Below are positions 1-61,251 of a stretch of DNA of 64,000 bases, in pieces. Origin of the DNA: Hericium rajendrae. Lineage: Eukaryota; Basidiomycota; Agaricomycetes; Russulales; Hericiaceae. The stretch covers positions 5,022,001-5,086,000 of the forward strand of contig CM065878.1 of NCBI GenBank assembly GCA_033439255.1, read 5' to 3'. Within the stretch, counting starts at the first letter, position 1. Each line of letters begins with the position of its first letter. The notes beneath the pieces were generated by a model. That model was not told the DNA's origin, did no database searches, and worked only from the letters and a program-made list of their open reading frames with translations. A program made the position numbers and the translations under genes.

Positions 1-338
1 CCCGTGATGAGCTTGAGAACCGCGATTATGAGTGGCGTGCGGCTTCAGCTGCGTATCATAGCGGAAAGATGAGCCATGCCGAGTACAGTGCGGTGCGAAA
101 GCGCATCCTGGACGCGGACCGCGCCTACGACAGGCGGGTAGAGGACTATCTAGTCCGAAGGGAGGCCGGGCAGACGAAGCCCGGTGAGTTCTTTCGAGAG
201 TTCTATGGTTGTACGGATGAGGAGGCGCAGGAGTGGCATCGTGACGAAGTCAACGCGGTGAAGATACGGAATGCCAATTTTGAAGCTCACAGCCAATCTC
301 GGGTTGCACAACAGAGCAGGCATGGGCGGGGCCACTGA
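1..338 (+). CDS. Gene A, copy 1 (A1), 5'-truncated by window edge
   Basis: This is the last exon of a gene-A paralogue; the earlier exons lie outside the window. The reading frame is open from base 3, upstream of the ATG at 69, and in this frame it matches exon 3 of copies A2, A3 and A5, which is 341-347 nt long, so only a few bases of the exon are missing. Visible signatures are a helical segment around GKMSHAEYSAVRKRI, the central block EAGQTKPGEFFREFYGCT and the C-terminal QQSRHGRGH. The function is unknown to me. It is followed 103 bp later, on the opposite strand, by the end of gene B1, as in every other module. The protein is hydrophilic, with no signal peptide and no membrane segment. 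Confidence 0.75.
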   Translation, partial: RDELENRDYEWRAASAAYHSGKMSHAEYSAVRKRILDADRAYDRRVEDYLVRREAGQTKPGEFFREFYGCTDEEAQEWHRDEVNAVKIRNANFEAHSQSRVAQQSRHGRGH

Positions 339-441
339 TTCCGTCATTTTGCCTATCATGAATTAATATATAGTCTCAGATCTTGTACTATACACGATGA
401 CCATCAAAGTTTGGGTATCAACGTCGCTAGAGCTTTTCCTC

Positions 442-1625
442 TCAGGGTCTTGTGTGCCTTTCATCGAGGCCATACCATTGACCTCCATTGACACGCAGCA
501 GCTCTCGATTCTGCCGCCGAAGCACAGAATTGTCCGTCCTTAGAGAGTCTATTTCTTGGTCGGAGGCGAACTGCGCCGCTCTCGCCTGGCCAGCTTCGTC
601 CTCGAGCCGCTGAATCCGGGCGCTCTGTTCATCGATATGGACAATCGCTGCACACGCTATGAGCTCTAGGCCTCATCTTATGGACAGGCGTGCGCACCTT
701 GTCTGATATGCTTCACTGATGGAGCCTCATATACCTGGAGATGGTTAGGGAGTCTTTTAGCGAGCTCCGCGATAGCTTCAGTCCTGTCCTTCCTGTGGCC
801 CTTGACTCTTAACGCTTCCTTCTTCTTGAACAGCAGCGCTTCGGCATCACTTGTCGACGGAGACGATGCGCGGTCCTTGCGCTTCGCACCGACTTTAGGA
901 GACTGAGGCACGGCTTCGGCGCGTGCGTTGCCTCCGATTGGAAGCCTCATTCTACCTATCATACTTGTCATGTTCGCTTTGTGGGAAGAGGTGCCGTCGG
1001 CTGGTCTACTGTGAAATGAAGTGCGCTGAGAACCTGGGGCTGTCCGTGTCTTCGATGGTACAAGTTTTGCTTTTGGAGCAAGCTGACTGCTGCTTGAAGA
1101 GGCGCGGGTGGTAGCATGTGGCTGATTTGAGTTCTGGCTGTATCTGACCGACGGCTGTGCGGAGTGATCATTGTAGGCCGACAAAGGCCAGTCGGGTGGA
1201 GTACTTTGAAACGATGCGCTGATCTGTTGGTCTGGTCTGGCGGGACGTCAGTCGTGTCGATAAATGAGATAGGCCGCTGTGGACTCACTGATTATTAGCA
1301 GGGTATAGACTATGAGGATACTGATAGCTTGACGAGGTACCAGCCGTGTGGGTATAAAGTGAGGATTCAGTCGTTTGCGTGTAGTTCGTATATTCAGCTT
1401 GCGTTGTACTTCGAAGCGTCGTGAGTTACGCTGCGCCCACGGCCGAGTGAAAGGTCCAACTACTTACTAAGGATAATATGCATTTGTTGTCGCATTCGTC
1501 GAAGACGTGCGTGCATAGTCGTATTGAATGCCCTGTGCTTGTTCGGCGCCAGCGCTGAACTGAGCAGAGCTAAGACAGGTGGGAGACCATCTTCGAGACG
1601 GTCCAGGCGTAGACGAGCGGTGCAT
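442..1625 (-). CDS. Gene B, copy 1 (B1): bHLH-like/coiled-coil protein
   Basis: Four exons (1625-1468, 1408-1289, 1236-698, 647-442) give 340 aa. The N-terminal two thirds is Ser/Thr/Gln-rich and low in complexity. It is followed by a basic patch with KRKDRASSP, a candidate nuclear signal, then RKDRTEAIAELAKRLP (helix 1), a loop, and AIVHIDEQSARIQRLEDEA (helix 2) running into a coiled coil. The spacing fits a basic helix-loop-helix dimerisation domain with a zipper, although the classical basic-region Glu is not obvious. A 50-nt phase-1 intron splits the loop from helix 2, as in B2-B5. The likely role is a nuclear DNA-binding or dimerising protein, which is inference. The N-terminus may extend further, because a block just upstream of the ATG is conserved between copies. 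Confidence 0.72.
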
Positions 1626-3386
1626 GTCGGTCGTAAGTCGTGAAAAGGCGACGTAAAGGAATAATTACCAAGGTCCATTGCATGTATTGGCTACTTTATA
1701 CACGAGTGATATCATCTTCGACAAGACGTCTGGCCATAGACGGTACAAGCCAGCTCTGGAAACAAGGTTGTTGTCAGCCAATACAATGGATGATAAGACT
1801 TGACGACGGGCTGAGCAAGTACGGACCTTACAAGGATTGCCTAGAGAATCAAAATGTCAGCTAAGACAAGGATAAGAGTCCTGTTCCCGACGAAGAAATC
1901 CTCGCGTCAAACAGCGTACCACAGAATGAGCTCTAGCTGTAGCTTCGGGAACTAGGTAATTGGCCTGAATTGAGTATGCATCCCTGAGAGTGACAGAGCG
2001 GAAAAGTATATAAAGGCATTGTCTTATCCAGTTCTGGTACAACACCGGCGCTCATATAATACGTACATTGAGCTGTACCTTGTATCCAGTTAGTTCCCAG
2101 TGCGAGAGCTAGGTCTTCAGCGTGCCTTCTGCAGACCGACGGACCATGGTTCGGTCGTAAACTGTTGGTCGATTTCAGGAGGATCATGCCAAGTTCGCGA
2201 AAGGCTGCTGGCGGAAAACAAGGGTTGCAAACGATCATCACACCTCGGTACCGCCACCTCTGGGGACCAATGCTTCCACACTCAAGGCATACCGCTGTGA
2301 AGGGACGCTGGCAGAGGACTCCCAGCTCAAACGTCGAAAGTCTTGAACAGTCGATTGGTGTTGTAGAGTACAGTTGATGTAGACGTCCGTGGCGGAGAGT
2401 TAGATCATGAGAAGCTGGAAGATGACATCGCACCCAGTGGCGGAGACGTGGAGAAGAGCTAGTCTTCGAAGCTGGAGAATGAATCTGCGCGGATCTGTAC
2501 TCAGAACAAGTGCCTGATTCGACACGATTGTGGGAATCGGAAGGAATTGCAGTCTTGCAGAGGCGGTGAGTCACAAGAAAGGAAATTGTTTGGATCGGAG
2601 GCCGTTGCCAAACAAACGCCTGGTGGACCGTTCGAAGCCGTCGATCTCGATTCTCATCCTCTTGTAGATCTTAGTCTACCAGCGAACACCACTGACCTGA
2701 TCCACTTTCTGTGCAGGAACAATAGCATGGACATATCCACCTCTTCTCGCGAATCCTATTTCTCCAATGGTCCTTCCACGGCGGCCTGAAACTGGACCCA
2801 CGCGGCAAGTCCCCGTAAGTCCCACGTTGACAATAAGTCTTACAGTCTCAGGTTTCGGTGGTCTGTTAGCGCTGTACGCGCTGCTACCGCACTGGAAAAT
2901 GGTCCACCATACTTTCCATGATCTCACAGCTTTGCCATTCCCAATTGTCTTGCTCTTACAGAGCTGCTGCCTTCACGACGGCCTCTAAATTTAAAGTTCG
3001 TCAGCCCTCTTATCAGGTTATTGTCATAGATTATGTCGCGTCCAAGTAATCCCATCTCTATGCGGCAACGACGTCGATTCCATTGCTGACATACCATGTC
3101 GCCATACCATATGCACATACGCATGCTTGGCAACAAGCAATGCGGAGCAACAAAAAAAAGAGAGGGACAAATAATTTCGGCGCTTTCTGACGCTCGAGTG
3201 CTCTCATCGGTCTGGCCTGTGAGGATATAGGTGAGCCATGAATCCTGAACGTCATCTCACTTTGCTCGACCCCGTTGTCCCGTGAGTTCTGTCTGTATGA
3301 CATGACTATCTTCGCTTATTACCTGCTCTTCTGACAGACATTCATCTTACGCCTTCCAAGTCGATTGACCACACGTGTCCATAGTC
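1626..3386. other. Intergenic region with duplicated blocks
   Basis: No intact gene is recognised. Bases 1700-1860 are similar to 5290-5430 and 13780-13920, which are the regions upstream of B2 and B3, so they probably contain the gene-B promoter. Bases 2740-2990 resemble 11140-11400: a stretch ending in a CAAG/GTAAGTC-type splice donor, then a segment with a shared 'CTGCC(T/A)TCACGACGG'. These look like decayed copies of a third transcribed unit, but no protein could be built. Confidence 0.4.
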
Positions 3387-3963
3387 ATGTCATACCCCTC
3401 GCATTCCTCGACATCGATTAGCATCGCCTCCGGTCACTCAGATCGCCGTAGTGTCCCATCACAGGCCATTCAGTCTGCCATCTCGACCCATCGTGAGTCA
3501 AAATTCTGCTAGGCATGTGATGGGTTTTACTCATGCTTTCTTCGATAGAACACAAGTCTTCTCAGATTGGTGAGACCATTCTTATGTCGATATTGTTTTG
3601 TTCATATAGGATGTAGGCATGCTCGCTCGCGGCGACGAGATCTACGAGCTTGACATGCAGCTCGAAGCTGCCATCACAGCATATTCCAGCGGACAGATTG
3701 GCAAAGTTGAATTCGACGCCATAGTCTATCACATCAATGATGCTATCCGTGATCGCGAGCGGCGTTATGCAGATTACTGCATACGAGAGCAGGCTGGGCA
3801 GACTCGACCCGTCGATTGGTACAAAGAGTTTTATGGATACACGGAGGAACAGGCGGAGGAGTATCTTCGTGAAGAACTCAGATTGAGAGATATCCGAAAT
3901 GCTAACCAGGCACGCAGTCAAACTCGCATGTTACAGCAGAGCCGACATGGGCGGGGCCATTGA
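3387..3963 (+). CDS. Gene A, copy 2 (A2)
   Basis: Three exons (3387-3492, 3549-3569, 3617-3963) give 157 aa. Exon 1 encodes a Ser-rich leader ending in QAIQSAISTH. Exon 2 is a 21-nt micro-exon. Exon 3 carries the conserved helical part, with a SHOCT-like hairpin around SGQIGKVEFDAIVYHI, EQAGQTRPVDWYKEFYGYT, and the basic C-terminus TRMLQQSRHGRGH. The exon lengths 106/21/347 are identical to those of A3, which supports the model. The start is the first ATG, shared with A3 (MSYPS). It converges on B2 with a 100-bp gap. I do not recognise the family. A small nuclear or cytosolic partner of B is possible but inferred only from pairing. Confidence 0.78.
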
Positions 3964-4063
3964 CTATACAATCCTGGTTTCGATGTAGACACCTTCAATA
4001 CAGCTTGACTCCATCAAGCCAGCAACACATGTAGAAATATGATGTTCAAGTATGTGACATGAA

Positions 4064-5212
4064 TTATACCTGTCGGTATTGTCGCCACGCTTGCAGCTCT
4101 AGCTCTAATTCGCCAATCCTGTTATTCAATCGAGCCAAGTCCTGAGCATTTGTGCGCTTCTCATTCCGCAGTGCTTGGAGTTCGTGTTGATATGCGATAT
4201 TTTGACGGGTAGCCTGGACGTGGGCAGCTCTAAGTTGAGCAGCCTCGTTCTCAAGCTCGTCAATGTGGATGATCGCTGTGCATGCAATCAGAGCTGAAGT
4301 TACCTCGATAGCGGATCCACACACCTTGTCTGATATTGGCCACAGTCGGCTTGTCCTCGAATAATTGCAAGTGGTGGGGGAGCCTCGTAGCCAGGTCCGC
4401 AACGTCACGACTCAACTTGTCCCTGTGCTTCTTGGCTTTCTCCGCGCGATCAGATTTCTGCACCCCCTCGGAGGTCTCCGCGCCCGTCGCAGCAGGCTTC
4501 GCCTTCTTGTTTGCCGGCGCCTCAGCGGCGCTGGTCATTTCTGTCGGAGACGGCGCGCGGTCCTTGCGCTTCAGCTCACCGACTGCGAAAAGCTGAGATG
4601 GGGCCTGGGCCGGTGCATTGCTTCCGAGCCGCCACCTGCCCATCTTGCTGTTCATGTCCGGATTGCTGTCTTTAGGACGGCGGGATGTGGACGCAATTGG
4701 CTTGGCGGGTTTGCTTCGTTTCTCGGACGATGCATGACTTGCGCTAGCTGCAGATTGTCTGATGCTTGTAGAGGTGGTGGTAGCAGCATATTGGTCGGCC
4801 GAGCTTGGGCTATAGTTGGTCGATGATTGTCCAGAAGGACCGTGGTAGGACACTTTGGGCCACTCCGCCGGAGCGCCGTACGAGGCACCGGTCTGTTGGT
4901 ATGGTCTAACGAGACGTCAGCCCTTTATATCCATCAAGGAGGTGTTGTTTCAAACTTACTGGAAGTTGTTATCGTTTGCATATCCAGCTTGCGTCGTGCT
5001 TCAAAGAGTTGTCAGTTACTTTACACCCACGGCCAAGGACAAGATTCTGCTTACTATGGATAGTATGCATTTGGGGTCGCAGTCATCATGAATGTATGTG
5101 CATAGTCGTGTTGTGAAGCCCGTGATTGTTCAGCACCAGGGCCGAACGTAGCAGGGTCAAGACTGGCAGGAGACCGTCTTCGAGACGGTCCAGGCGTAGA
5201 TGGGTGTTGCAT
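4064..5212 (-). CDS. Gene B, copy 2 (B2): bHLH-like/coiled-coil protein
   Basis: Four exons (5212-5055, 4998-4960, 4905-4325, 4275-4064) give 329 aa. The start MQHPSTPGPSRRRSP matches MHRSSTPGPSRRWSP of B1. A low-complexity middle with LKRKDRAPSPTE precedes helix 1 RDKLSRDVADLATRLP (about residues 227-242), a loop with KPTVANIRQ, and helix 2 AIIHIDELENEAAQLRAA. A coiled coil of about 50 residues ends the protein. The intron at 4276-4324 (49 nt, phase 1) falls between loop and helix 2. Exon 1 is 158 nt in both B1 and B2. The protein is probably nuclear and dimeric. The first-exon start is the least certain part. Confidence 0.75.
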
Positions 5213-6011
5213 GTCTGTCGTTAGTCGTAGCAATAAGACGTAAGGGAATAGCTACTGGCCCCATTGCAGGTCCTGAATGCTTTATACGCTGGGACCATCG
5301 TCTTCGACAAGACGTCCGACCATAGATAGTACAAGTCAGTTCGTAAAACAAGGGTGTCAGGACGACAGATCTTGACGACGGGCTGAGTACGTAAGGACCT
5401 TACAAGGATTACCTAGAGAATAAAATGTAAGCTCCAAAGCACTGACACGAATCAACTTATTTTCGTGGCCCGGAGACGCTTGTCGCAGCGAGGAAATAGC
5501 AATAGCGTCTTGCGTCGAGCTACTGAAAATATTTCCTCTGTTTTCTGGGTCCAGAAGTCAACCCGTCTAGCTATATCGTTAGCCTGAGTGGATGCGCATC
5601 CTCGTGAGCACCGGAAGATGAGAACAAGAGCATAGTCACAGTCCGATTCGAGCACAAAACGCGCCAGCGCTCACTGTAAGGGCGCATACGCAAACTCGTA
5701 CCCTGTCCTATAACGTGATGTAAAGCAACATCTCTTTAACTTCCCTTTTCTAGAGGCAAAAGCCATGGCAAGTTTGACAGTCCGTTGTGAGTGGTCGTAG
5801 TCGTGAACAAGAGAGTTGCCCACCATCTCAACGCGGTCGGCAGAAGGTCGGCTATTTCCGGCGCCGGCACAGTGGCCTTCCCGGAGATAATGCTGGCGGC
5901 CACCCTGAGCGTTTTCTTTGCAGTCAGACAACATTGACTGCACCGCTGTCCCACTCTTGTCTAGCACCGGTCCAGACGCTATTAGTCTCTATCTTGGATC
6001 AAGGAATACAC
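5213..6011. other. Intergenic region upstream of B2, up to the LTR element
   Basis: Bases 5290-5430 match the upstream regions of B1 and B3. The short motif TTACGACTAACGA-like (about 5213-5235) precedes the first ATG in B1, B2, B3 and B5. It may be a 5'-UTR intron branch site (CTNAC) or a conserved leader. From 5440 to 6011 I see only short spurious reading frames. Confidence 0.4.
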
Positions 6012-6016
6012 GCTTC
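6012..6016. repeat. Left 5-bp target-site duplication (GCTTC) of the copia element
   Basis: GCTTC directly abuts the left LTR, and the same five bases follow the right LTR at 11139-11143. Five bases is the usual duplication length for Ty1/copia integrases, so this fixes both element ends. Confidence 0.8.
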
Positions 6017-6421
6017 TCTTGCGCGTGATAGGTCTTCGAGATGGCTATAAGTAGACAATAAAGGATGTATTGCTCAGCTCTCGAAGAATAGAACTGTAGC
6101 TACGAAAGTGCAAACCTATAAGTAGACAATAAAGGATGTATTGCTATTATAGTAGTTAGCTTTTGAGTCGAAAGGAAATAAGAACAATATAACGAACCTC
6201 AGCTCTCGAAGAATAGAACTGAGGGAAAAAGCTGTCGGTATCGTAGCGTGTATGGTAAGAGTCCGTTCAGCCACAAAGACCAGAAACTGTATAGTATATT
6301 GTCCGTGGACCAATATTTGCCTCCGTCGTAGAGACCAGCGCCGACGCTCCTGGCGTCGGCCACACGTGACCACGTCGCGCTCAATGGGCGCGCGTCGCGG
6401 AGTGTCCCTCGACTTCCAACA
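6017..6421 (-). repeat. 3' LTR of the copia element
   Basis: This 405-bp repeat matches 10734-11138 base for base as far as I can read. It contains two internal short duplications: a block with GTAGACAATAAAGGATGTAT, and CTCTCGAAGAATAGAACTG, each present twice. Confidence 0.92.
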
Positions 6422-6428
6422 CGCCCAC

Positions 6429-9335
6429 TCACTCCGTGTGAGCTAAGCCCATGCCTGCGACAAAGCGGTCGTGCTTCTCGCGCGATAGGCCCTTCGTGAG
6501 CACGTCGGCAACTTGATCCGCCGTCGGAATGTATTCCGCGGCAATTGTGCCGTCCTCGACCTTGTCCCGTAGGAAATGATGACGCACGTCGATGTGCTTC
6601 GTGCGCGCGTGGTAAGCGGGATTCTTGGCGAGGGCAATTGCACCTTGGTTGTCGATAAGGAGGAGCGTCGGCCGTTCGATCGGCTGACGCAGATCTGAGA
6701 GTAGCATACGCAACCACACGGCTTCCTTAGCGGCATGGGCTGCGGCCATATACTCGGCTTCCGTGCTCGACTGAGCGACGGATTGCTGCTTCTTCGAGGA
6801 CCAGGAGATCGCGGCACCGGCAAGGGTAAAAACGTAGCCGCTGATGGATCGGCGATCGTTCGGATCGTTGGCCCAGTCAGAGTCGACATACCCTGTAAGC
6901 TCGTCGTTCTTCCGCTTCCCGTTATAGACTAACTGGTAGTCCGCAGTCCGTCGGAGATACTTGAACGTGCGTGCGGCGACGTTCCAGTGTTCCGCGCCAG
7001 GGGCGGAACTGTGTTGGCTGAGGAGGCCAACCGCGTAGGCGATATCAGGGCGCGTGCCGAGCATCGCGTACATGAGCGATCCGACGGCGCTTTGGTACTT
7101 GCGGGCATCGATCTCGGCGGCTGGGAGCTTCTCGAGCTTCTGATTGACCGAGACGGGAGTGCTGATGGGGCGCGCGTCGGCAAAACCGTGGCGCTCCAGA
7201 ACGTCGGCAATGTACCTCTTCTGTGAGAGGGTGACAATCTTCAGCGCGCGGTCGCGCGTGACTTCCATGCCGAGAATCCAGCGCATCTCGCCGAGGTCGG
7301 TAATCTCGAAGATTTTCGAGAGCCGCGCCTTTGCCTGTAAAATCGCCTCCATGCTGTTCGAGGCAGCTCCGATGTCGTCAACATAAATAATGATGATTAG
7401 GAGCGTACCATCGGAGTCGCGATGGAAAACAAAAACGCCGTAATCGGCATAGGATCTCGAGTAACCGAGATCGCGGAACTCCCGTTCGATGCGCATGTAC
7501 CATACGCGTCCCGCTTGCTTGAGCCCGTAAATCGACTTGATTAGTCGCCAAACGATGTTGCCGTCGCCTCGGAAACCTGGAGGGGGCTCCATGTAGATCT
7601 CTTCTTCCAGATCTCCGTTGAGGTAAGCGGTCTTGACATCCATTTGATGGAGTTCGAGGTCGTGCTTGGCAGTGAGGGCTAGCAGTGCACGGAGAGAGTT
7701 GAATTTCATCACCGGGGTGAACGTTTCGTCGAAGTCGACGCCTTCTACCTGTGTGAACCCTTTTGCCACAATGCGTGCCTTGTAGCGTTCGATCGCGCCA
7801 GTCGGGCCTCGCTTGATGCGGAAAACCCAGCGGCTGTCGATAACTTTGCGGTCTCGCGGTCGAGGCACCTCAGCGTAGACATTCTTGTCCAGCAAGGATT
7901 TGAGTTCCTCGGCGCATGCTTCGGACCACTCGGCGGAATCGGAGCGGTGCATGGCTTCATTGTAGGTTTGCGGGTCGCCAGATTCAGCGTGCGCCCGATG
8001 AGCGTGCTCGTCGCCCACTGGCTCGGGGCCGTCGTCATCGGGGATGTTCTCGACTGTCGGCTTCTTCCGGTTATACGATGAGACCTTGAGTTTTGGGTCG
8101 TCGCGTATCGGGACTGCGGCCTTGCGCGTGGAGCGTCGTGGCGCAGGTGCCGGTGGGTCGGTCGCCGGTGAGTCGGTAAGTGCAGGTGAGTCTGAGTGAA
8201 TGCTCGTGCTCTCGCCCCCTCGCTCGGGCTCAGCTGGCGCGTCGGCTGGAGCGACGGTCGGAGCGGCGGCGGGAGCGGAAGCCTCAACTTCGATCAGGGC
8301 ACGATGCGGAGCGACGGTGCCTTCGTCGAATATGACGTCGCGGGACTCGAAAACGCGGCCAGTCGGTCGGTGAACGACGCGGTATGCCTTGCGATTTTGG
8401 GCGAGACCGATAAACGTGCATTCGAGCGATTTCGGGTCGAGCTTGCGACGGTGCTTGTCAGGCACGTGCACATGAGCTTTGCAGCCGAAAACGTGAAGTT
8501 GCACAACTGAGGGCTTGTTGCCAGACCATGCTTCATGCGGGGTGATGTCGCTGGGCAGGGAACGGGTGGGTACGCGGTTGTGAATGTAAGCCGCGTACTC
8601 GATAGCATCGAACCAGAAAGAGTTCGGTAGCTCAGCGTCAGCTAACATCGCGCGTGCAGATTCAACGAGCGTGCGGTTGATGCGCTCGGCAACGCCGTTC
8701 TGTTGGGGCGTATCCGCATTGGACTTCTCGTGTTTGATGCCACGCTCACGGAGGAAAGTCTGGAGCACCGTAGACTTGTACTCTCCACCACCGTCGGATC
8801 GCAAGATCCGCATCTGTTGACCCGATTCGAGCTCGGCGCGTGCGATGTAAGCCTGGAGGTGGGTGAAGACTTCAGCCTTGTGCCGCATCCCGTTGACCGA
8901 GGCATCACGCGAGTGATCGTCGATCCAGGTAACGAAATATTGGTAACCTTGACGGGACATGGTTTGCATCGGGCCGCAGACGTCCGAATGGACACATCCA
9001 AGAATAATCTCCGCGCGCGTCTGTGATTCCTTGGGAATGACGGCGCGTGCCTGCTTCCCTTTGAGGCAGGGCGAACAGGTGCCGATGGAGTCGCGAGCGG
9101 TGTCGCCGATGATGGACATCCCGTCGACCATGCCGTGCTTCATCATACGTCGAGACGGCATCAACGCTGATATGTCCGAGTCGGCGGTGCCAAGTGCGAA
9201 GGTCTGCGGTGGAGACATGCACTTTTGCAGGCATTGCGGCTGGTTCGGAAGCGAGTGGATCGGTGTCGGAGTCACTGTCCGCGGAATCGGAGGACGGATC
9301 GGGGAGATGGGCAATATAGGCGGTGGCCGGGGCAT
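6429..9335 (-). CDS. copia pol: integrase, reverse transcriptase, RNase H (downstream frame)
   Basis: The open frame is 968 codons. Its first codons are overlap or out-of-frame sequence; real pol begins near the frameshift at about 9150. Recognised in order are a pre-integrase zinc region (CSPCLKGKQ), the integrase core (DVCGP, WIDDHSRD, NGVAERINRTLVES), the RT (KARIVAKGFTQ, QMDVKTAYLNGD, active site YVDDI), and copia RNase H (SSTEAEYMA, HIDVRHHFLRDKV). The length is complete to the stop just before the 3' LTR. Codon usage and domain spacing look undamaged, so the element may have died only recently or may be mobilised in trans. Confidence 0.9.
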   Translation of the reverse strand: MPRPPPILPISPIRPPIPRTVTPTPIHSLPNQPQCLQKCMSPPQTFALGTADSDISALMPSRRMMKHGMVDGMSIIGDTARDSIGTCSPCLKGKQARAVIPKESQTRAEIILGCVHSDVCGPMQTMSRQGYQYFVTWIDDHSRDASVNGMRHKAEVFTHLQAYIARAELESGQQMRILRSDGGGEYKSTVLQTFLRERGIKHEKSNADTPQQNGVAERINRTLVESARAMLADAELPNSFWFDAIEYAAYIHNRVPTRSLPSDITPHEAWSGNKPSVVQLHVFGCKAHVHVPDKHRRKLDPKSLECTFIGLAQNRKAYRVVHRPTGRVFESRDVIFDEGTVAPHRALIEVEASAPAAAPTVAPADAPAEPERGGESTSIHSDSPALTDSPATDPPAPAPRRSTRKAAVPIRDDPKLKVSSYNRKKPTVENIPDDDGPEPVGDEHAHRAHAESGDPQTYNEAMHRSDSAEWSEACAEELKSLLDKNVYAEVPRPRDRKVIDSRWVFRIKRGPTGAIERYKARIVAKGFTQVEGVDFDETFTPVMKFNSLRALLALTAKHDLELHQMDVKTAYLNGDLEEEIYMEPPPGFRGDGNIVWRLIKSIYGLKQAGRVWYMRIEREFRDLGYSRSYADYGVFVFHRDSDGTLLIIIIYVDDIGAASNSMEAILQAKARLSKIFEITDLGEMRWILGMEVTRDRALKIVTLSQKRYIADVLERHGFADARPISTPVSVNQKLEKLPAAEIDARKYQSAVGSLMYAMLGTRPDIAYAVGLLSQHSSAPGAEHWNVAARTFKYLRRTADYQLVYNGKRKNDELTGYVDSDWANDPNDRRSISGYVFTLAGAAISWSSKKQQSVAQSSTEAEYMAAAHAAKEAVWLRMLLSDLRQPIERPTLLLIDNQGAIALAKNPAYHARTKHIDVRHHFLRDKVEDGTIAAEYIPTADQVADVLTKGLSREKHDRFVAGMGLAHTE

Positions 9336-10665
9336 CGGTTATGGCGTTGACGACATAAAGGTTGTCGATGCGACGCGCGATCCCGACAAGCGCGTTGTCA
9401 GGGGCGATGATGTGGCATTGTTCGGCGGCGAAATTGACGTTGATGCCTCGGGTGTTGAGTTGGGCAACAGACATCAGATTTCCGTGAAGGTCGGGTACGT
9501 AAAGTACGTCTCGGAGGATCACCGGGGATTCGTGTGAGCCAATGCACATGCGGATCGCGATGCGGCCGATGCCGCGGGCAAGGATGCATGAGTCGTCGCC
9601 GAGCCAAACTTTGATCGGCGGCGAGAGCTCCGCGTACTGGAAGAACCAGGAACGATGGGATGACATCGTACGTGAAGCGCCCGAGTCAAGTAGCCACTTG
9701 TCGATGAGCGCGTTGCATCGAGGGGCCGGAGCGCGTGCCATGAAAATGCGCACGACGGTGGCGGGTTCCTCGGTAGCGGCAACCTTGGCAACGGCAGAGG
9801 AAGAAGATGATTTGTCCTTCTCCGCTTGGGAAGCCTTGAGCTTTCGACAATCATCACGTACGTGGCCTCGGTTATGACAATACTCGCATCTGATGACCTT
9901 CTTCTCGCCTCCCTTGCCCGCCCCCTTGCTGCCTGAACTATTTCCCCCCTTCCCACCAAACTTCTTAGAAGCACGCGCCAATAGGGCGGTAGCGGTGAGT
10001 GATTCCTTGCGCCGTTGTTCCTCCTGCAAGACCTGAGTCTTGACCTTGTGCGGGGTTAGGTCGGAGATAGCGCCGGAAGTGAGGATGGTCTTCAGCGTGT
10101 CATAGGACGGCGGAAGGGCGAGCATGATGGCAACGGCGACGAGTTTCTCGTTAAGCGGGCAGGAGAGCGCCGTGAGACTCTGCGAAGCACGCTGAAGCAC
10201 GTTAATTTGCGGCTCCAGTGGTTCGTCGTCCGATAAATTTCCTCGGAAGAGTTGGCTGATGAGGAAGGCGATCTTCTGCTCGCCTTCGCCTTCGTAACGT
10301 GCGACTAAGCGATCCCACGCGGCTTTGGCGGTCGTAACGTCGGTGACGGTGTTGAGCGGGTCGGACTCTAAGGTGAGTGTGATTTGCGCTCGTGCTTCGT
10401 CGTTGCCGAGGGCCCATTCGTCTCGGGCGTCCTGGCTTGCGTTAGCGGCCGGTTCGACCTTCGTGCCGTCGACATATGGCCAGAGTCCGCGTATGCGGAG
10501 CACCATCTTCGAACGGTATTTCCATTCGGCCCAGTTCGAGTCGTCCTTCAGGAACTCGACGTCGTATAGGCGATTGGAGCCGCGGGCTTTGATGGAAGCC
10601 TGCGAAGCGGCGGGGGTCGATACGGGTGACTTGCCGGATGTCTTGCCGGAGTCGCTGCCGGTCAT
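8905..10665 (-). CDS. copia gag plus protease (upstream frame, ends at frameshift)
   Basis: The frame is 586 codons starting MTGSDSGKTSGK. Gag (LYDVEFLKDDSNWAEWK onward) is followed by a CCHC zinc knuckle CEYCHNRGHVRDDC, the aspartic protease motif LLDSGASRT, and the gag-pre-integrase start TWHRRLGHIS. After about SVDAV the frame departs from family expectation while the homologous continuation RRMMKHGMVDG appears in the pol frame. This indicates a single-base deletion near 9150. The last 80 or so codons of this frame are therefore noise. A programmed frameshift is unlikely because it would fall inside a domain. Confidence 0.88.
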   Translation of the reverse strand: MTGSDSGKTSGKSPVSTPAASQASIKARGSNRLYDVEFLKDDSNWAEWKYRSKMVLRIRGLWPYVDGTKVEPAANASQDARDEWALGNDEARAQITLTLESDPLNTVTDVTTAKAAWDRLVARYEGEGEQKIAFLISQLFRGNLSDDEPLEPQINVLQRASQSLTALSCPLNEKLVAVAIMLALPPSYDTLKTILTSGAISDLTPHKVKTQVLQEEQRRKESLTATALLARASKKFGGKGGNSSGSKGAGKGGEKKVIRCEYCHNRGHVRDDCRKLKASQAEKDKSSSSSAVAKVAATEEPATVVRIFMARAPAPRCNALIDKWLLDSGASRTMSSHRSWFFQYAELSPPIKVWLGDDSCILARGIGRIAIRMCIGSHESPVILRDVLYVPDLHGNLMSVAQLNTRGINVNFAAEQCHIIAPDNALVGIARRIDNLYVVNAITDAPATAYIAHLPDPSSDSADSDSDTDPLASEPAAMPAKVHVSTADLRTWHRRLGHISVDAVSTYDEARHGRRDVHHRRHRSRLHRHLFALPQREAGTRRHSQGITDARGDYSWMCPFGRLRPDANHVPSRLPIFRYLDRRSLA

Positions 10666-10719
10666 GGCGGGATGCTAATATTATCTGCACGGAGTTCTTG
10701 TTTTGAAGTTATAATGACG

Positions 10720-10733
10720 CAGGGCCCATAACC
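10720..10733 (-). promoter_or_regulatory. Primer-binding site of the copia element
   Basis: GGTTATGGGCCCTG lies directly next to the 5' LTR. It is complementary to the anticodon-arm region of initiator tRNA-Met, the half-tRNA primer strategy known from Drosophila copia. Confidence 0.65.
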
Positions 10734-11138
10734 TCTTGCGCGTGATAGGTCTTCGAGATGGCTATAAGTAGACAATAAAGGATGTATTGCTCAGCTCTCG
10801 AAGAATAGAACTGTAGCTACGAAAGTGCAAACCTATAAGTAGACAATAAAGGATGTATTGCTATTATAGTAGTTAGCTTTTGAGTCGAAAGGAAATAAGA
10901 ACAATATAACGAACCTCAGCTCTCGAAGAATAGAACTGAGGGAAAAAGCTGTCGGTATCGTAGCGTGTATGGTAAGAGTCCGTTCAGCCACAAAGACCAG
11001 AAACTGTATAGTATATTGTCCGTGGACCAATATTTGCCTCCGTCGTAGAGACCAGCGCCGACGCTCCTGGCGTCGGCCACACGTGACCACGTCGCGCTCA
11101 ATGGGCGCGCGTCGCGGAGTGTCCCTCGACTTCCAACA
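10734..11138 (-). repeat. 5' LTR of the copia element
   Basis: This is the second copy of the 405-bp LTR. It carries the element promoter by position and is followed by the GCTTC duplication at 11139-11143. Confidence 0.92.
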
Positions 11139-11143
11139 GCTTC

Positions 11144-11753
11144 GTCTGCAAACGTCATGTTTTCTAACGATCCTTCTACGGTGACCTGCCCGGTCCCACG
11201 TCAACAAGTAAGTCATAAATCATCTTATCTGCGTCAATCTGAAGAACTGGGTTCTACCACTGCATTGAGCGATAGTTTATTGACCATATCGTCCGTAATA
11301 TTACACTGGATCGACATAGCCAATTGTCGAAATCGTCGAGAGATGCTGCCATCACGACGGTTTCCACGTTTCCACTGAGCTTATTGTCCCAGGCCGTGCG
11401 GGGCAGTTTCACAGCTATCTCTGGATTGTTACATGTCATTGTTGCCACGGCTGACGCGTGCCACATCGCCATGGCATGCACGTACTCGGCGTAAGAAAAC
11501 GACGCGAAGACAAAAGGTGGTAAACAATTGACCTCAATGCTTGCACGGACTTGAGTCCTGTCGTCTCATCTGCGAGTATATAAGCTACCGGCAAGTCCTG
11601 AGTCCCGTTCAATATCAGCATCTGAGTGAACCATACCGCATTTTCTCGTGAGTCTTGACCGCACGAGACAGCCGCTTTTACTCATTGAGTGTTTTTGGTT
11701 CTAGAAACGCATTTGGCGCATCCGAGATCGACTCCACCCACCAGGTTCTAACT
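11144..11753. other. Host sequence between LTR element and A3
   Basis: Bases 11140-11400 are a diverged copy of 2740-2990. A short ATG frame at 11158 ends at a good donor (CAA/GTAAGTC), but no continuation could be built. AGTATATAAG at about 11576 is a plausible TATA box for A3. Confidence 0.35.
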
Positions 11754-12333
11754 ATGTCTTACCCCTCGAGCTCTTCGACATCGAGTGGCATGGCTCCAGG
11801 CCAATCAGGCCATTATATCGTTTCACCACAGGCCATTCAATCTGCTATCTCGACGCATCGTAAGTCGACAATTTGATGGGTTTGTTGGAAGCTGTACTAA
11901 TTAGCTTGGTCTCATAGAATATAAATCCACTCGAATTGGTGAGAGGATTCTCGCGTCGGCATTATTCTTATTCATCCGGGCCCTAGAGAATCTCGCTCTC
12001 GACGATGAGCTTACTCGAATTCGGATCGAGTGGAACGCCGCTTACAGAGCGAATCTCTGCGGGCAGATGAGCGACGACGAGTACGCTGCTGTGGAAATAC
12101 GCCTCAAGGATGCTAGAGATGCCTTCCGCAGGCGCGGTGCGGATTACGACGCACGCAGACGGGCTGGACAAACTAAACCCACTGACTTCTTCAAGGAGTT
12201 TTATGGTTGTACAGACGAAGAGGCAGAGGAATGCCTCCGTTATGGCATGAACCTGGAAGACAGAAAAAGAGCCAATGAAGTGCACAACAGATCTCGCATG
12301 CTACAACAGAGTAGGCATGGACGCGGTCACTGA
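11754..12333 (+). CDS. Gene A, copy 3 (A3)
   Basis: Three exons (11754-11859, 11918-11938, 11987-12333) give 157 aa, with exon lengths 106/21/347 exactly as in A2. The leader is MSYPSSSSTSSG ending QAIQSAISTH. The micro-exon encodes about QYKSTRI. Exon 3 has the hairpin LCGQMSDDEYAAVEIRL, the core RAGQTKPTDFFKEFYGCT and the end SRMLQQSRHGRGH. It converges on B3 with a 119-bp gap. The preceding copia element inserted about 615 bp upstream and may affect expression. Function unknown. Confidence 0.8.
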
Positions 12334-12452
12334 CCGTATAATTCTGCCTACAATGTATAGTAGTAGTCTTGTCAAGTAGAATCTATTGCCATCGGTTCAG
12401 GATAAGATAATGTGTCAGGTGCTGACAAGGTACTAGGAGCCCGAGATTGTTA

Positions 12453-13689
12453 TCACACACGTTGAGGATATCCATATTGCCATGTCTGCAGCTGCCTCTC
12501 CAATTGTCCGATTCTCGCGTCCTTTTGAGCGAGTTCGCATCGTAGTGCATGAATCTGTGCTTCTTTTTCAAGATCCAAACAATCAAACCGTCGCTTTTCT
12601 TGTTTGTGGGCGCTGTAAGCCGCTTTCAATTGAGCGGCCTCGTCCTTGAGCCGCACGATCTCACCATTCTGCTCATCGATGTAGTTGGCCGCTGGACATG
12701 CAATCAGCATTGAAGTCATCTCAATAACGGGAACACGCACCTTTTACAATGTTCTCCTTCGATGGCATCTTCCCAGGCGCTAGCAAGTGGCTGGGGAGCT
12801 TCCCAGCGAGTTTCGCAATGTCACTATTCAGCTTGTCCCTAGCATTTTGGGCTCTCGCTCTTCCCGCTTCCTTTCTCTTTGCCTCCTTCTCCGGGGGCGC
12901 TCCGGCGCGGATCGAGTCTGGCGTCGGTGAGCGTTCCTTGCGCTTCTCACCGGCCGCGGAAGGCCTCGGCTGATATGTCAGTGGGTCCGCGACCGGAATC
13001 GTTGATGCCATATTTGCGGCACGGAACCTGTTCATCTTGCTCTTCATGTCTGGAATGATGCCTTTCCTCGGGCGTGACGTGGACGCAGTCAGCATAGAAG
13101 CCTTGGTCCGTGTCTCTGATGATGCAGGGGCACTCCCTGCAAGTTGACTGCTGCTTGTAGAGGCAGCGGCGGCGGCACGCTGGTCGGTCGAGCCCAAGCC
13201 GAGTGATGTTTGCTCCGAGAGATCGTAGTAGGACTGTTGAGGCCATTCTGTTGGAGCGCTGTGATAAGGTACGCCGGTCTGCTGGTATGATCTAGCGATA
13301 CATCAGCTGTATTTTCAATAAAGTATGTTTCTTGGAACTTACTGCGTATTATTAGGGTTTGCATTATAGTTCTGGTAGCTCTGAGATGATACTATCGTTT
13401 GGGAATAGTAAGTGGATCCAGTCGCTTGAAGAGGATACGAGTATCCGGTCGGTATTGTACTGGACGCCGCCAAAGTTACGACGTGTCCGCAGCCAAGGAC
13501 AAATTCGACTCACGATTGGTATTGTCCATTTGGTGTTGCCATCGTCACAGAATTACGTGTGGGGTCATATGGCCAACCCTGTGTTTGAGCAGCGCCAGCG
13601 CTGAACTGAGCAGGATCAAGAATCTTGGGCGACATCCTCTGGGACGAGGTTCGAGATGGTCCATGAGTAGGAGAATATGAATGCTGCAT
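12453..13689 (-). CDS. Gene B, copy 3 (B3): bHLH-like/coiled-coil protein
   Basis: Four exons (13689-13514, 13459-13343, 13291-12741, 12691-12453) give 360 aa. Exon 1 starts MQHSYSPTHGPSRTSS. A Gln/Tyr/Ser-rich middle contains SYQQTG, also found in B2 as PYQQTG. EKRKERSPTPDS precedes helix 1 ARDKLNSDIAKLAGKLP, a loop with MPSKENIVK, and helix 2 AANYIDEQNGEIVRL, then a heptad-rich coiled coil. The K-x-x-I-x-K-A-x-x-Y-I pattern of loop/helix 2 is the best bHLH match in the family. A 49-nt phase-1 intron splits it. Probably a nuclear dimer; its partner could be another B copy or an unlinked bHLH protein. Confidence 0.77.
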
Positions 13690-15022
13690 ATCGATCGTTA
13701 GTCGTAAGAATGAGATGTAAGACGTTAAGATGGATGGTTTGAACGTACGTCCTGGTTTTGGCGACTTTATATGATAGTACCATCATCCTCGACAGGTCGT
13801 TCGTCCATAGATGGTACAAGCAAGTTGAGGAGACAAGATCGTCAGCAAGTACAATGGACAACATGACTTGACGACGGGCTGAGCAGCTACGGACACTACA
13901 ACGGTTTCCTAGAAAATCAAATTACAGTATAAGCTTGAAGACACGGATGTGTATATCTTCGCATTAGCTGTCGAAACTGCTGATAATCATAGTCAAGAAA
14001 TACCAACATCACTCGCATGGCCTGCCACTACGACGCGTCAGCCCATTTTCCAGGTGCAATACTATCGGAGAAATACTAGACGATCTGCTTGCATGGGGCG
14101 AGCATTTCTGTGACCCGGAGAACAAGGGCGTTATCGCAGCCCTAAATCGAGTACAAGTCACTTCTACAGACACGCAAATGAAGACCGCACCTTGTCAGGG
14201 AATATCCGGAAACGTGCTGTCCAATGCGATCGCATTGTCTCTGTCAAACCTGCAACATATGTCTACTGCTTCGCTGCGCTGCAGCATGAGTTGTAGAGGT
14301 CAGAACGAAGACAGGCGCCTCCATGTTGATGAACAAAATTCGGCAGTTTCCGAGCTCAGCGACAGACAGCGACAGACGCTCGACTCCTCATCCGGACCCC
14401 GACCAGGCTACGATGCTTACTTCCACGCTACGTTTCTCCTTCCTTCTTTCTCTGGATCCCATGCAGTGCTGAGTTGGTCTTGAAGTGCTGCAGCAACCGC
14501 TATCGCAATTGTCTATGACAAAGAAGATATTATGAATTCTCACCGTGGACAGTCGATTACTCTCTTTGCCGGAGATGGTAGATCGAACTTCCAGCTTCAT
14601 TGCGGTGTGCTTTGTGATGGAAGTCTCTTCGACGGTGAGTGGTGTCTTATTGTTGTCCTGACAGGTCATCGACATCGCGAACAACCAAGCTGCCAGCCGC
14701 TTCGGTGTACCTTGTACGGGCTCGGTTCCGTTGTCATTGACCGCATCTGACTTACGCCGAGGCCTTGGAACAATTAGGTTGCATCTCTACGTTCTGCAGA
14801 GGTGTCATTTTTCCTGTATCCTATACTGGCATCGCCGCGAGACAAAAGACCAGTTTAGATCCGCTGGCAACGCCGCATTGCAAGGCAAGTCCAGCGTTGG
14901 GCATAGCAAAGTTCATTCAGGACACCTATTCCTCAAAAATAGCTCTCGCTCTCAGATATAAATGAGCTTCCTGTGTCGAGGTATTTACTCCCATCTATCT
15001 GATTCGACACCTCTCGTCTGTC
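13690..15022. other. Intergenic region between B3 and A4
   Basis: Bases 13780-13920 are the B-upstream block shared with B1 and B2. From 13920 to 15000 only short unsupported frames are present. TATA-like ATATAA at about 14956 precedes A4. Confidence 0.35.
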
Positions 15023-15573
15023 ATGTCTTCCAACGTTAGTAGTTCTCATGGTACCCATGCGTCAGTTCCTCAGCAATCAACCCCAGCGTCCGCTCCACAC
15101 GGTAAGCAGAACTGATATAATCTCAAGCGAGCTCTCCCATTCGCTGCAGAATGCTACATCACGCGTTTATTATAGCTTCCGCGCACCTTCAGCAGCCAGG
15201 TGATCTATGGTTGTTTAAAATGTATAAATCCCATCCATATCGCGCAGGTGCTGCTATGGTCGACCCGCACTTCGAGCTGCATGAGGCTATACGGCTGAGC
15301 CGTGCAGGGCTCATTAGTCTTCAAGAATACAGCGCCATCGCTCGCCGCGCGACAAACGACATCGTCGAGGAAGGGAAGCGCAAGCAAGCCTTGATTGACA
15401 AATACATCGGGCGCACACCCACTCCAGCCGAGCTGCAGCGCGACTTCGGCTATACACCCGAGCAGCTGCAGGCCGGGGTGGACTACTACATGCGCATGTA
15501 CAATATTCCTGTGGAGAACGCGATGCGCAGCCGGGATCGTCCGCGTAACTGTAGGAGTGCGCGGGGACACTGA
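15023..15573 (+). CDS. Gene A, copy 4 (A4), divergent
   Basis: Three exons (15023-15101, 15176-15199, 15248-15573) give 142 aa. The micro-exon is 24 nt rather than 21 nt; an earlier acceptor would bring an in-frame stop, so the acceptor at 15175 is chosen. The leader MSSNVSSSHGTHASVPQ is shorter. The hairpin is SRAGLISLQEYSAIARR. The core is reduced to GRTPTPAELQRDFGYTPEQL, and the C-terminus is NCRSARGH instead of QQSRHGRGH. This is the most diverged copy, paired with the equally diverged B4 across a 252-bp gap. Confidence 0.72.
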
Positions 15574-15825
15574 GGTATGCGTGGCATTGACTCGCACTGA
15601 ATATCGCTGACAATTTGCTTATAGTATCAATGGTATCATCCCGCCTTATTGCATATCGTCATGTAGCAATATACCCAAGAATGTATGAAGGATGCTCTTA
15701 TGCGTCTTCAGCCAAGAAATACATTATTGTCTAACTTCGCATGGCTTCAGTTCGCCATCGTCCATATTGTATCGTCCCTGTTATCTGGCACAGGCTCAGC
15801 CATGCTGCATGCCCCGAAGACTCGC

Positions 15826-16668
15826 TCATGCGTTCATCCTTCTATCCTTCAGGTGCCCGTCCCGCGACATCGCCTGCGCTTGCATCTGCGCGATCGTCCC
15901 GGCCATCGCAGTCTTCTCATATACAAGCTGCTCATTCGCAGCCTGTGCCGACCGGCACTGCGCGTCCAGCGCCCCCACTTGCCTCTGCAGCTCCTCAATT
16001 GTCGCCTGCACCACGCGGAGATAGTCAGTAGCTGTACACTCGATCAGCAGGTGTCCGCGGTGCAGAAGGACGAGCTCACCTCTGTCGATGGCGCGCATGT
16101 CTGGCTGGTATGAGTCCTGGCGGTACGGCGGCGGCAGCAGCGCATTCAGCTCGGCGAGCCGGTTCCGCCGCCGGTCGCGCATCCTGTCCTGCTCGCGCGC
16201 GCCCTTGCTCTTACCCTCACAGCCGTCCGTCCCGATGCTTGCCGCGCGCTGCGCGGCCAGCGGCGTGTGTGTCGCGTGGGAGGATCCTGCAGGGAACTTG
16301 TATGTCATCGAGCGCATGGCGTCTTTGTAGGACGCGCTTGAGCTTGAGCAGTCGTGCGTGCTCAATGCAGGCATCGGAGAGATGTTCGCTGATGGCGCGG
16401 AGGATCGATGGCCATGGTGAGTTCCGGTGTGACTAGACGGGTGCGGGCTCGCGTGCATGCTTGGATTGACATTAGCCGACGGTTTCCAGCACGTTAAAAC
16501 ACCTGTCGCTTACTGATGTACGCCTGCGTACGACGTGCTGGCGGCCGGCGCCATCGCAGGACTCGGAAACTGCACGAACTGGATGGGCTCGTCCAGCATC
16601 CATTCGCTGGGGTTGAGCCAGTTCGAAGATACTCTGTGCGAGGCCGAGTGGTCATGGTGCGAACCCAT
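15826..16668 (-). CDS. Gene B, copy 4 (B4): shortest bHLH-like copy
   Basis: Three exons (16668-16514, 16459-16080, 16031-15826) give 246 aa. It lacks the KRKDR block and much of the low-complexity middle. The C-terminal domain is the most canonical: RMRDRRRNRLAELNALLP (basic region/helix 1), a loop with QPDMRAIDR, and helix 2 ATDYLRVVQATIEELQRQV followed by a coiled coil to the end. The 48-nt intron between loop and helix 2 is in frame, so unspliced mRNA would insert 16 residues there. The start is MGSHHDHSASHRVSSNW. The pairing with A4 is convergent. Confidence 0.75.
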
Positions 16669-61142: not shown

Positions 61143-61251
61143 ATATACATCGCGTTCATTGTAGTTTCAATCTCCAGGGATACATTAAAGATAATTGAGA
61201 GTAGGATAATGAAGCCAATAGACGAGTCACGGGTATCGCGATGGTAATTAT

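What the first reader, a model, noticed from the sequence alone, without database searches (positions are those of the whole stretch)
1..16668. Five-copy convergent two-gene module: small GRGH protein plus bHLH-like protein
Seen in sequence: modules at 1-1625, 3387-5212, 11754-13689, 15023-16668 and 60571-62571 each hold gene A (plus strand) and gene B (minus strand) ending 100-252 bp apart. Exon structure is conserved: a 21-24 nt micro-exon in the four complete A copies and a 48-50 nt phase-1 intron in B, while the proteins are strongly diverged. Inference: A and B are co-inherited partners under diversifying selection, perhaps a recognition, self/non-self or drive-type system, or a regulator with its modulator. 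I know of no described system of this form.
Basis: partly seen in the sequence, partly recalled or inferred. Interest (0 to 1): 0.88.

Follow-up and report, generated by a model that had tools for sequence, protein, structure and literature searches.

The report
Matched gene pairs with variable cores
A tooth-fungus genome carries many copies of a two-gene unit, a DNA-binding-type protein facing a small partner of unknown family, whose facing ends are old and very different from copy to copy while the outer parts are kept more alike, a pattern that would fit a lock-and-key recognition system, though what it does is not yet tested.

Summary
In detail: five convergent A/B modules lie at the stated places with conserved splicing. 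They belong to an array of 18 facing A/B pairs on one contig (C1:4.77-5.20 Mb), with relics elsewhere and a far-diverged second locus of similar layout on C3. Database relatives were found only in Hericium alpestre. B is bHLH-zipper-like; A is a small helical protein without known relatives.

New result: between module copies, A's last exon and B's last exon (the facing 3' halves, a core of about 0.7 kb) are more diverged at synonymous sites than A exons 1-2 and B's DNA-binding half, in 6 of 6 close copy pairs (Fisher p 4e-5 to 9e-13). A-core and B-core distances covary (Mantel r 0.59). All 4 H. alpestre A/B pairs with consecutive locus tags match one module with both cores (one weakly). Core dN/dS is 0.17-0.35: purifying, not diversifying.

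Best reading: matched specificity pairs in which A is the dedicated partner, probably inhibitor, of a bHLH-Zip-like regulator. Self/non-self recognition and poison-antidote drive remain open. The array lies at neither mating-type locus. Function is inferred.

The parts
1..338 (+). Gene A1: exon 3 from its 12th base on (exon 3 is -11..338; the gene starts 240 bp before the window at C1:5021760)
   Evidence: Spliced model; 157 aa, phases 1,1, micro-exon 21 nt at -81..-61
442..1625 (-). Gene B1, bHLH-Zip-like, 340 aa, exons 1468-1625, 1289-1408, 698-1236, 442-647
1..647 (.). Core of module 1: A1 exon 3 + 3'-3' spacer + B1 last exon
   Evidence: pS core 0.67 v flank 0.27 against module 08 (C1:5005333-5007266); B1 last exon 94% identical to H. 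alpestre P0009
3387..3963 (+). Gene A2, exons 3387-3492, 3549-3569 (micro-exon), 3617-3963; 157 aa
4064..5212 (-). Gene B2, exons 5055-5212, 4960-4998, 4325-4905, 4064-4275; 329 aa
3617..4275 (.). Core of module 2
   Evidence: pS core 0.42 v flank 0.11 against module 09 (C1:5009219-5011055)
11754..12333 (+). Gene A3, exons 11754-11859, 11918-11938, 11987-12333; 157 aa
12453..13689 (-). Gene B3, exons 13514-13689, 13343-13459, 12741-13291, 12453-12691; 360 aa
11987..12691 (.). Core of module 3
   Evidence: pS core 0.55 v flank 0.21 against module 11 (C1:5014641-5016559)
15023..15573 (+). Gene A4, exons 15023-15101, 15176-15199 (24 nt), 15248-15573; 142 aa; the most diverged of the five window A copies
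   Evidence: orthologue H. alpestre EWM64_g345
15826..16668 (-). Gene B4, exons 16514-16668, 16080-16459, 15826-16031; 246 aa
   Evidence: orthologue EWM64_g344, named 'BHLH domain-containing protein' by its source
60571..61142 (+). Gene A5, exons 60571-60676, 60736-60756, 60802-61142; 155 aa
61252..62571 (-). Gene B5, exons 62330-62571, 62193-62270, 61565-62136, 61252-61514; 384 aa

Best explanation
Each module encodes a matched pair. B is a bHLH-leucine-zipper-type regulator. Its N-terminal and DNA-binding half is shared and kept more alike among copies. Its dimerisation half (end of helix 2 and the long coiled coil, encoded by the last exon) is particular to each copy. A is a small all-helical partner whose folded part (exon 3) is also particular to each copy and carries a near-constant RGH tail. 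A is most likely the dedicated, specificity-matched partner of its own B's coiled coil, probably an inhibitor. The two specificity parts lie tail-to-tail with about 100 bp between their stop codons, so they are inherited as one core, while A exons 1-2 and B exons 1-3 (and in some copies the promoters) are homogenised within the array, presumably by unequal exchange or gene conversion. The result would be a set of regulators that act on the same targets but each answer only to its own partner, suited to recognising which pairs are present after two nuclei meet. Shown: gene models, array, core/flank contrast, covariation of the cores, matching of pairs across two species, dN/dS well below 1. Inferred: physical A-B binding, inhibition, common DNA target, recognition role, the exchange mechanism.
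For: Core v flank synonymous divergence, six of six close pairs: 09/14 pS 0.42 v 0.11, 11/15 0.55 v 0.21, 08/13 0.67 v 0.27, 02/03 0.63 v 0.33, 01/12 0.71 v 0.47, 19/21 0.61 v 0.38; Fisher p 9.1e-13 to 3.9e-5. In 08/13 the non-coding DNA upstream of both genes is 75-98% identical per 60-base window while the core windows are 36-73%. On C3, B'2 last exon + A'2 is 45-75% beside a B'2 flank of 87-98%. Mantel A3~B4 r 0.59, p 1e-4; partial given B3 0.56; A3~B3 given B4 -0.03; without two near-duplicate modules A3~B4 0.35, p 0.017 (13 and 11 modules). H. alpestre: P0009 and P0010 are identical over the last 70 aa before the last intron site but 48% after it, while P0009's last exon is 94% identical to window B1. 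The 4 H. alpestre pairs with consecutive locus tags give the same best module for A and B cores: 06, 07, 16, and weakly 07. Core dN/dS 0.17-0.35. B profile against PDB: Myc E 1.3e-4, USF2 0.0022, Max 0.012; all 8 hits that start before profile position 50 (the basic/helix-1 half) are bHLH proteins. Predicted folds, made on the H. alpestre relatives P0001 and P0011: A residues 51-140 helical at block pLDDT 88-96; B helix - loop - 72-residue helix, the long helix at about 95 but the first helix only about 60.
Against: No binding, expression or genetics. One haplotype of one strain, so allelic diversity is untested. Covariation of the cores could come from close linkage alone. Core and flank of B also correlate (B4~B3 r 0.44), so the separation is not complete. 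In three of five pairs viewed by window (11/15, 02/03, 01/12) the outer non-coding DNA is itself poorly alike in stretches (30-60%), so the homogenised flank is uneven. Cores may have stayed different merely because diverged DNA no longer converts. dN/dS does not exceed 1. Pfam HLH is not reached by any B tested, and the E-box contact residues His5/Glu9 (rule recalled) are not conserved in the match to Myc, so DNA binding is uncertain. Only 2 of 6 H. alpestre B cores and 3 of 8 A cores have a counterpart at 85% or more in the best local match, and module 07 is the best match of 3 of those 6 B cores, so agreement on it is weaker evidence.
Confidence: 0.5

Rival explanations
1. Selfish poison-antidote pairs (meiotic-drive type): B harms spores or nuclei that lack the matching A; A is the antidote; arrays grow by drive and decay by loss of B first.
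For: Many copies with few clear core counterparts between species. Intact A without intact B in 7 of 20 (no B: a04, a10; B with internal stops: a03, a06, a12, a19; poor B: a18), whereas all 13 intact B of the C1 array face an intact A. wtf drivers also form a large family with pervasive conversion and putative antidote-only members (PMC6526906, passages). An H. erinaceus cross reported 15 segregation-distortion regions (PMC7005679, passages; no link to this locus known).
Against: B is about 1.7-2.5 times as long as A, so it would decay first by chance. On C12 an unbroken B reading (b23) faces an A (a23) that I did not count as full length. wtf is one gene with two transcripts and predicted transmembrane domains, and there conversion is not confined to one portion. 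A bHLH-Zip-like regulator as poison is unusual (recalled). Pairs and some cores are older than the species split.
Confidence: 0.2
2. Mating-type-like non-self activation: A of one nucleus combines with B of another nucleus (not its own) to switch on a dikaryon programme, like HD1/HD2.
For: Old core, adjacent specificity parts, shared DNA-binding half, few core counterparts between congeners, some cores shared across species. High dS and trans-species polymorphism are hallmarks of fungal mating genes (PMC8970355, passages).
Against: Not at a mating-type locus: homeodomain and MIP lie at C1:2.085-2.089 Mb, STE3 at C2:4.205-4.253 Mb, array at C1:4.77-5.20 Mb. About 20 intact A in one haplotype would offer many internal non-self pairs unless all are mutually incompatible.
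Confidence: 0.12
3. Neutral consequence of a tandem array: the facing ends diverged early, stopped converting and simply persist; A and B need not interact.
For: Conversion needs similarity, so diverged islands persist. The array cores are roughly equidistant (A identity mostly 43-60%).
Against: Pairwise dN/dS of the cores is well below 1. In some orthologues the core is better conserved between species than the flank: P0001-a14 93 v 80%, P0006-a02 84 v 71%, P0009-b13 94 v 81%; but in P0002, P0003, P0004 and P0005 it is the reverse. The non-array-like pair b16-P0014 shows no contrast (86 v 85%). A steep identity fall on the B side recurs on a second contig. The cores covary as a unit.
Confidence: 0.15

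Closest known systems
HD1/HD2 homeodomain pairs of the basidiomycete matA (HD) locus
   Same: Two tightly linked genes; regulators with a conserved DNA-binding part and a variable part; several subloci; old, trans-species divergence (passages of PMC5100862 and PMC8970355); variable parts of the two genes face each other (recalled)
   Different: Here bHLH-Zip-like B and an orphan helical A; convergent, not divergent; 18 facing pairs on C1; unlinked to HD/MIP and STE3; conserved RGH tail on A; outer parts homogenised across paralogues
wtf spore-killer family of Schizosaccharomyces
   Same: Large family, non-allelic gene conversion, specificity between partner proteins, putative antidote-only copies (passages of PMC6526906)
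   Different: Two separate convergent genes instead of one gene with two transcripts; regulator-type protein; contrast concentrated in a fixed core
bHLH-leucine-zipper transcription factors (Myc/Max/USF/SREBP class)
   Same: Profile match over basic region, helix 1, loop, helix 2 and zipper; predicted helix-loop-long helix
   Different: Below Pfam HLH cut-off; E-box His5/Glu9 not kept; zipper strongly diverged among paralogues; paired with a dedicated neighbour gene

Membership tests
bHLH-Zip transcription factors | Sequence profile of basic-helix-loop-helix plus zipper | tested here: met
   Profile of 12 B or B-like domains chosen by me: Myc 5i4z E 1.3e-4 over profile 15-99, USF2 E 0.0022, Max 0.012, Pho4 0.18; 8 of 8 hits starting before profile position 50 are bHLH (48 hits at E<=1; the other 40 start at 52 or later, in helix 2 and coiled coil). 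A 5-sequence profile gave Myc at E 0.0069
bHLH-Zip transcription factors | Pfam PF00010 HLH over its cut-off | tested here: not met
   No hit at E<=1 in 5 spliced B nor in P0014, bx2 or a C3 B'; one unspliced exon at E 0.094, 13 bits against 20.7; the genome-wide HLH search lists 14 matches, none in the array, but it reads exon by exon and the domain is split by an intron
bHLH-Zip transcription factors | E-box contact residues His5-Glu9-Arg13 (recalled rule) | tested here: not met
   In the HMMER alignment with Myc the His and Glu positions are not conserved, the Arg is
bHLH-Zip transcription factors | DNA binding | not testable with these tools
   needs DAP-seq or EMSA
HD mating-type (matA) locus | Homeodomain proteins at the locus | tested here: not met
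   Homeobox_KN matches only at C3:1187854 and C1:2085043
HD mating-type (matA) locus | Linkage to MIP | tested here: not met
   Peptidase_M3 at C1:2087343-2088874 and C3:0.787-0.790 Mb; array 2.7 Mb away
HD mating-type (matA) locus | Divergent transcription of the pair | tested here: not met
   19 of 19 facing A/B readings are convergent, one with a poor B model
Pheromone/receptor (matB) locus | STE3 receptors at the locus | tested here: not met
   STE3 matches only at C2:4.205-4.253 Mb
Poison-antidote meiotic drivers | Distorted transmission or killing of non-carriers | not testable with these tools
   needs crosses
Multi-specificity recognition loci under balancing selection | Specificity region older and more diverged than flanks, shared across species | tested here: inconclusive
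   Met between paralogues and for a few cores across two species, but the feature is defined for alleles, which could not be seen
Multi-specificity recognition loci under balancing selection | High allelic polymorphism within a species | not testable with these tools
   one haplotype only

The most novel reading that the evidence does not exclude
A previously undescribed self/non-self recognition system of tooth fungi: a repertoire of about 20 bHLH-zipper regulators, each locked by its own cognate small partner, with ancient specificity cores maintained across species inside a concertedly evolving array, and an older second locus of the same design on another contig.
Probability: 0.35. Interest if true: 0.93.

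Novelty: categorically new. Interest (0 to 1): 0.8.

Why it matters
Known mushroom recognition pairs use homeodomains or pheromone receptors. A third, repertoire-type system built from bHLH-zippers and an orphan partner would give a new route to study how fungal nuclei and individuals tell themselves apart, or a new class of selfish pair. It also offers many natural, co-inherited protein pairs for learning coiled-coil specificity. The core/flank contrast makes the idea directly testable by binding matrices and population sequencing of an edible mushroom genus.

Tried and rejected
Mating-type locus: rejected by position. Diversifying selection with dN/dS above 1: rejected for the pairs tested. 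Mobile element: the modules carry spliced introns; terminal repeats of the modules were not sought, only the LTR element at 6016-11032 was checked. Fast-mutating 3' ends: disfavoured because in three clear orthologues (P0001, P0006, P0009) the core is better conserved than the flank between species, and b16/P0014 shows no contrast. Known fold of A: no PDB match, best Foldseek E 0.78; by sequence the best PDB hit was a syntaxin at E 0.019, taken as chance. The B model gave none either (one match, E 8.9), most of it being of low confidence. SHOCT resemblance of a C3 A' (E 0.0091, below cut-off) not pursued. Shared promoter motif: k-mers common in the array are not common in the distant modules, so no autoregulatory site is claimed. 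Wider taxonomic reach: three protein searches found H. alpestre only; the B search scored only the 7999 candidates sharing most words, and relatives without shared 5-residue words would be missed.

Rows left out: the Mantel test used 13 modules (01, 02, 03, 05, 07, 08, 09, 11, 12, 13, 14, 15, 21). Left out were 06 and 18 (poor B models), 19 (N-terminal part lacking) and 16, 17, 23 (too diverged). The per-pair core test was made on the 6 of 91 module pairs (14 modules) with B exon-3 pS below 0.40. Over all 91 pairs, near saturation, A3>A12 in 64, B4>B3 in 67 and B4>B12 in 62. One of the six close pairs (19/21) has A12 pS above A3 pS (0.62 v 0.58). P0012 was left out of the core comparison because its last exon is missing. 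No synonymous-site test was made on C3.
Full report
What is there. The window is C1:5022001-5086000 of an unnamed 46.8 Mb genome. The only database relatives found for the two proteins are 8 A and 7 B proteins of Hericium alpestre, so this is probably a Hericium or a close relative. A spliced aligner written here recovered A2 and B2 from the A3 and B3 queries.

The array. Searching the genome with A3, B5, A4, A5 and B4 (counts are lower bounds) showed that the window holds part of a large family. I modelled 24 A loci: seven at C1:4.773-4.818 Mb (A on the minus strand), fourteen at C1:5.005-5.201 Mb (A on the plus strand), one truncated on C10 and two on C12; C19 carries a near copy of the C12 stretch, judged by its hits. 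Of the 24, 20 are full length without internal stops. Nineteen A loci (18 on C1, one on C12) have a B-like reading facing them tail-to-tail; the spacing is 77-252 bp in 17 of the 19, and 18 and 34 bp in two whose B models are doubtful at that end or throughout (b07, b18). Thirteen B in the C1 array are without internal stops and well modelled. b03, b06, b12 and b19 hold internal stops, and b18 is a poor model. Two intact A (a04, a10) have no B beside them. Some weak or fragmentary A hits (C1:5101447, 5104810, 5199329) were not modelled.

A second, far older locus. The A4 query gave four individually insignificant hits (E 0.04-0.55) in two clusters on C3. The DNA there shows two copies, 25 kb apart, of a four-gene unit B'> <A' ... 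A'> <B'. The four A' end in RNSRGH, RNPRGH, RSPRGH and RSARGH. In the two A' that I read by eye there is a phase-1 intron; in the one B' read by eye the last intron is phase 1 at the same place as in B (N|AIACFTD against Q|AIIHID). Aligned, the first A' and the window A share 20-25% identity, and nine columns are invariant among eight A and A' sequences, including the final RGH. I take this as homology; it rests on layout, intron, tail and alignment together, not on an E-value.

What the proteins are. B: a profile of 12 B or B-like domains matches bHLH-Zip structures (Myc E 1.3e-4, USF2 0.0022, Max 0.012). All 8 of the 48 hits that begin in the basic/helix-1 half are bHLH proteins; the other 40 start in helix 2 or the coiled coil. 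The AlphaFold model, made on H. alpestre P0011, shows a helix (pLDDT about 60), a loop and a 72-residue helix (about 95); the rest is of low confidence. Against: Pfam HLH is never reached in the proteins scanned, and in the alignment to Myc the E-box His/Glu positions are not kept. A: the model, made on H. alpestre P0001, is all-helical in exon 3 (block pLDDT 88-96 for residues 51-140) with a disordered N-terminal part. It has no Pfam family over cut-off and no PDB fold match.

Core and flanks. Synonymous divergence separates each module into two parts. The core is A exon 3, the short 3'-3' spacer and B's last exon. The flanks are A exons 1-2 and B exons 1-3. In six close copy pairs (all of the 91 with B exon-3 pS below 0.40) the core is more diverged: 0.42 v 0.11, 0.55 v 0.21, 0.67 v 0.27, 0.63 v 0.33, 0.71 v 0.47, 0.61 v 0.38, Fisher p between 3.9e-5 and 9.1e-13. 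In pair 08/13 the non-coding DNA upstream of both genes is 75-98% identical per 60-base window while the coding core is 36-73%; pair 09/14 is similar upstream of A and less so far upstream of B. In 11/15, 02/03 and 01/12 the outer non-coding DNA is in stretches only 30-60% alike, so the homogenised part is uneven. On C3, B'2 falls from 95% to 48% within one 60-base step, some 36 bases into its last exon, and B'1 falls from 97-100% to 68-85% beginning in the 200 bases before its last exon; there the low stretch takes in the whole A' gene, exon 1 included, so the A-side boundary differs from the array. The boundary in B lies in helix 2, so the DNA-binding half is in the flank and the dimerisation half in the core. 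Core dN/dS is 0.17-0.35 (flank 0.29-0.43): constrained proteins, not dN/dS-type positive selection.

Cores travel as one. Over 13 modules, A exon-3 distance correlates with B last-exon distance (Mantel r 0.59, p 1e-4) and keeps doing so after removing the effect of B exon 3 (0.56). A exon 3 against B exon 3, given the B core, shows nothing (-0.03). Without the two near-duplicate modules, r is 0.35, p 0.017. The separation is not complete: B core and B exon 3 also correlate (0.44; 0.21 without the two modules). Close linkage alone could produce the A-B covariation.

Across species. In H. alpestre, P0009 and P0010 share 70 of 70 residues before the last-intron site and only 48% after it, while P0009's last exon is 94% identical to that of window gene B1. 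P0001 is 93% identical to a14 in exon 3 but 80% in exon 1; P0006 to a02 84 and 71%. In paralogues flanks are more alike than cores; in these three orthologues cores are more alike than flanks. That reversal is the mark of concerted evolution of flanks around old cores. Other candidates do not show it: P0002-a06, P0003-a07, P0004-a07 and P0005-a17 have cores at 57-70% against exon 1 at 70-82%, and P0010, P0011 and P0013 have closer flanks than cores, which I read as core replacement or absence of the true orthologue. Their best core match is the same module for both genes (06: 70 and 68%; 07: 66 and 74%; 16: 85 and 88%; 07: 44% over 45 residues and 70%). Module 07 is the best match of three of the six B cores, so agreement there counts for less. 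Only 3 of 8 A cores (P0001, P0006, P0007) and 2 of 6 B cores (P0009, P0014) have a counterpart at 85% or more, so the sets differ between the species or are incompletely annotated.

How it works. I think A is the dedicated partner, most likely inhibitor, of the B whose coiled coil it matches, and that all B share a target, so the array is a repertoire of lock-and-key pairs. That reading has probability about 0.5. Poison-antidote drive (0.2) draws on the fact that B is broken more often than A, which B's greater length may explain. Mating-type-like activation (0.12) is weakened by position: HD and MIP are at C1:2.085-2.089 Mb and STE3 at C2:4.205-4.253 Mb. A neutral island model (0.15) is not excluded without binding or population data. 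The checking of this report changed wording and counts, not these odds.

Comparison with print. Passages seen: PMC8970355 on balancing selection in Trichaptum mating loci, PMC5100862 on HD organisation in Flammulina, PMC7005679 on the H. erinaceus map, PMC6526906 on wtf. Search listings 37, 38, 68, 69, 88, 89, 100 and 101 showed no description of a convergent bHLH plus small-partner array; the library holds open-licence papers only. No known system that I tested has all its tested defining features met, so I rate the system categorically new in make-up, with function unproven.

Noticed in passing
window 6016-11032: LTR retrotransposon (gag-pol type reading frames 6429-9338 and 8905-10674 on the minus strand, named by eye) between modules 2 and 3; its 300-nt direct repeats 6016-6315 and 10733-11032 are identical, so the insertion is recent.
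   Followed up: partly
window 45590-47578 (-) and 52600-54342 (+): Two long open frames with F-box-like domains between modules 4 and 5; the other 8 of 10 frames scanned had no Pfam match at E 0.001.
   Followed up: no
L029 and L030 (C3:2636501-2642500, C3:2661501-2667000): Second, far-diverged locus: two copies of a back-to-back double module B'><A' A'><B' with near-identical B' flanks and different cores.
   Followed up: partly
C2:2359107-2359340: Another weak A4-like hit (27% identity, E 0.10) that was not fetched.
   Followed up: no
C12:61809-65020 and C19:22767-25923: A5/B5-like decayed copies with matching hits on two contigs; C19 may be a duplicate or haplotig of C12.
   Followed up: no
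C1:4702745-4703493 (L004): Lone bHLH-Zip-like gene resembling B, with no A hit beside it in the searches; possible relative of the ancestor.
   Followed up: partly
C1:4.77-4.82 Mb and C1:5.005-5.20 Mb: The two halves of the array have opposite orientation, separated by about 190 kb; whether this is an inversion is unknown.
   Followed up: no
L011 (b03), L015 (b06), L001 (b12): In three B copies the first in-frame stop lies within the first 13 codons, which may mark young losses, other start sites or sequencing errors.
   Followed up: no
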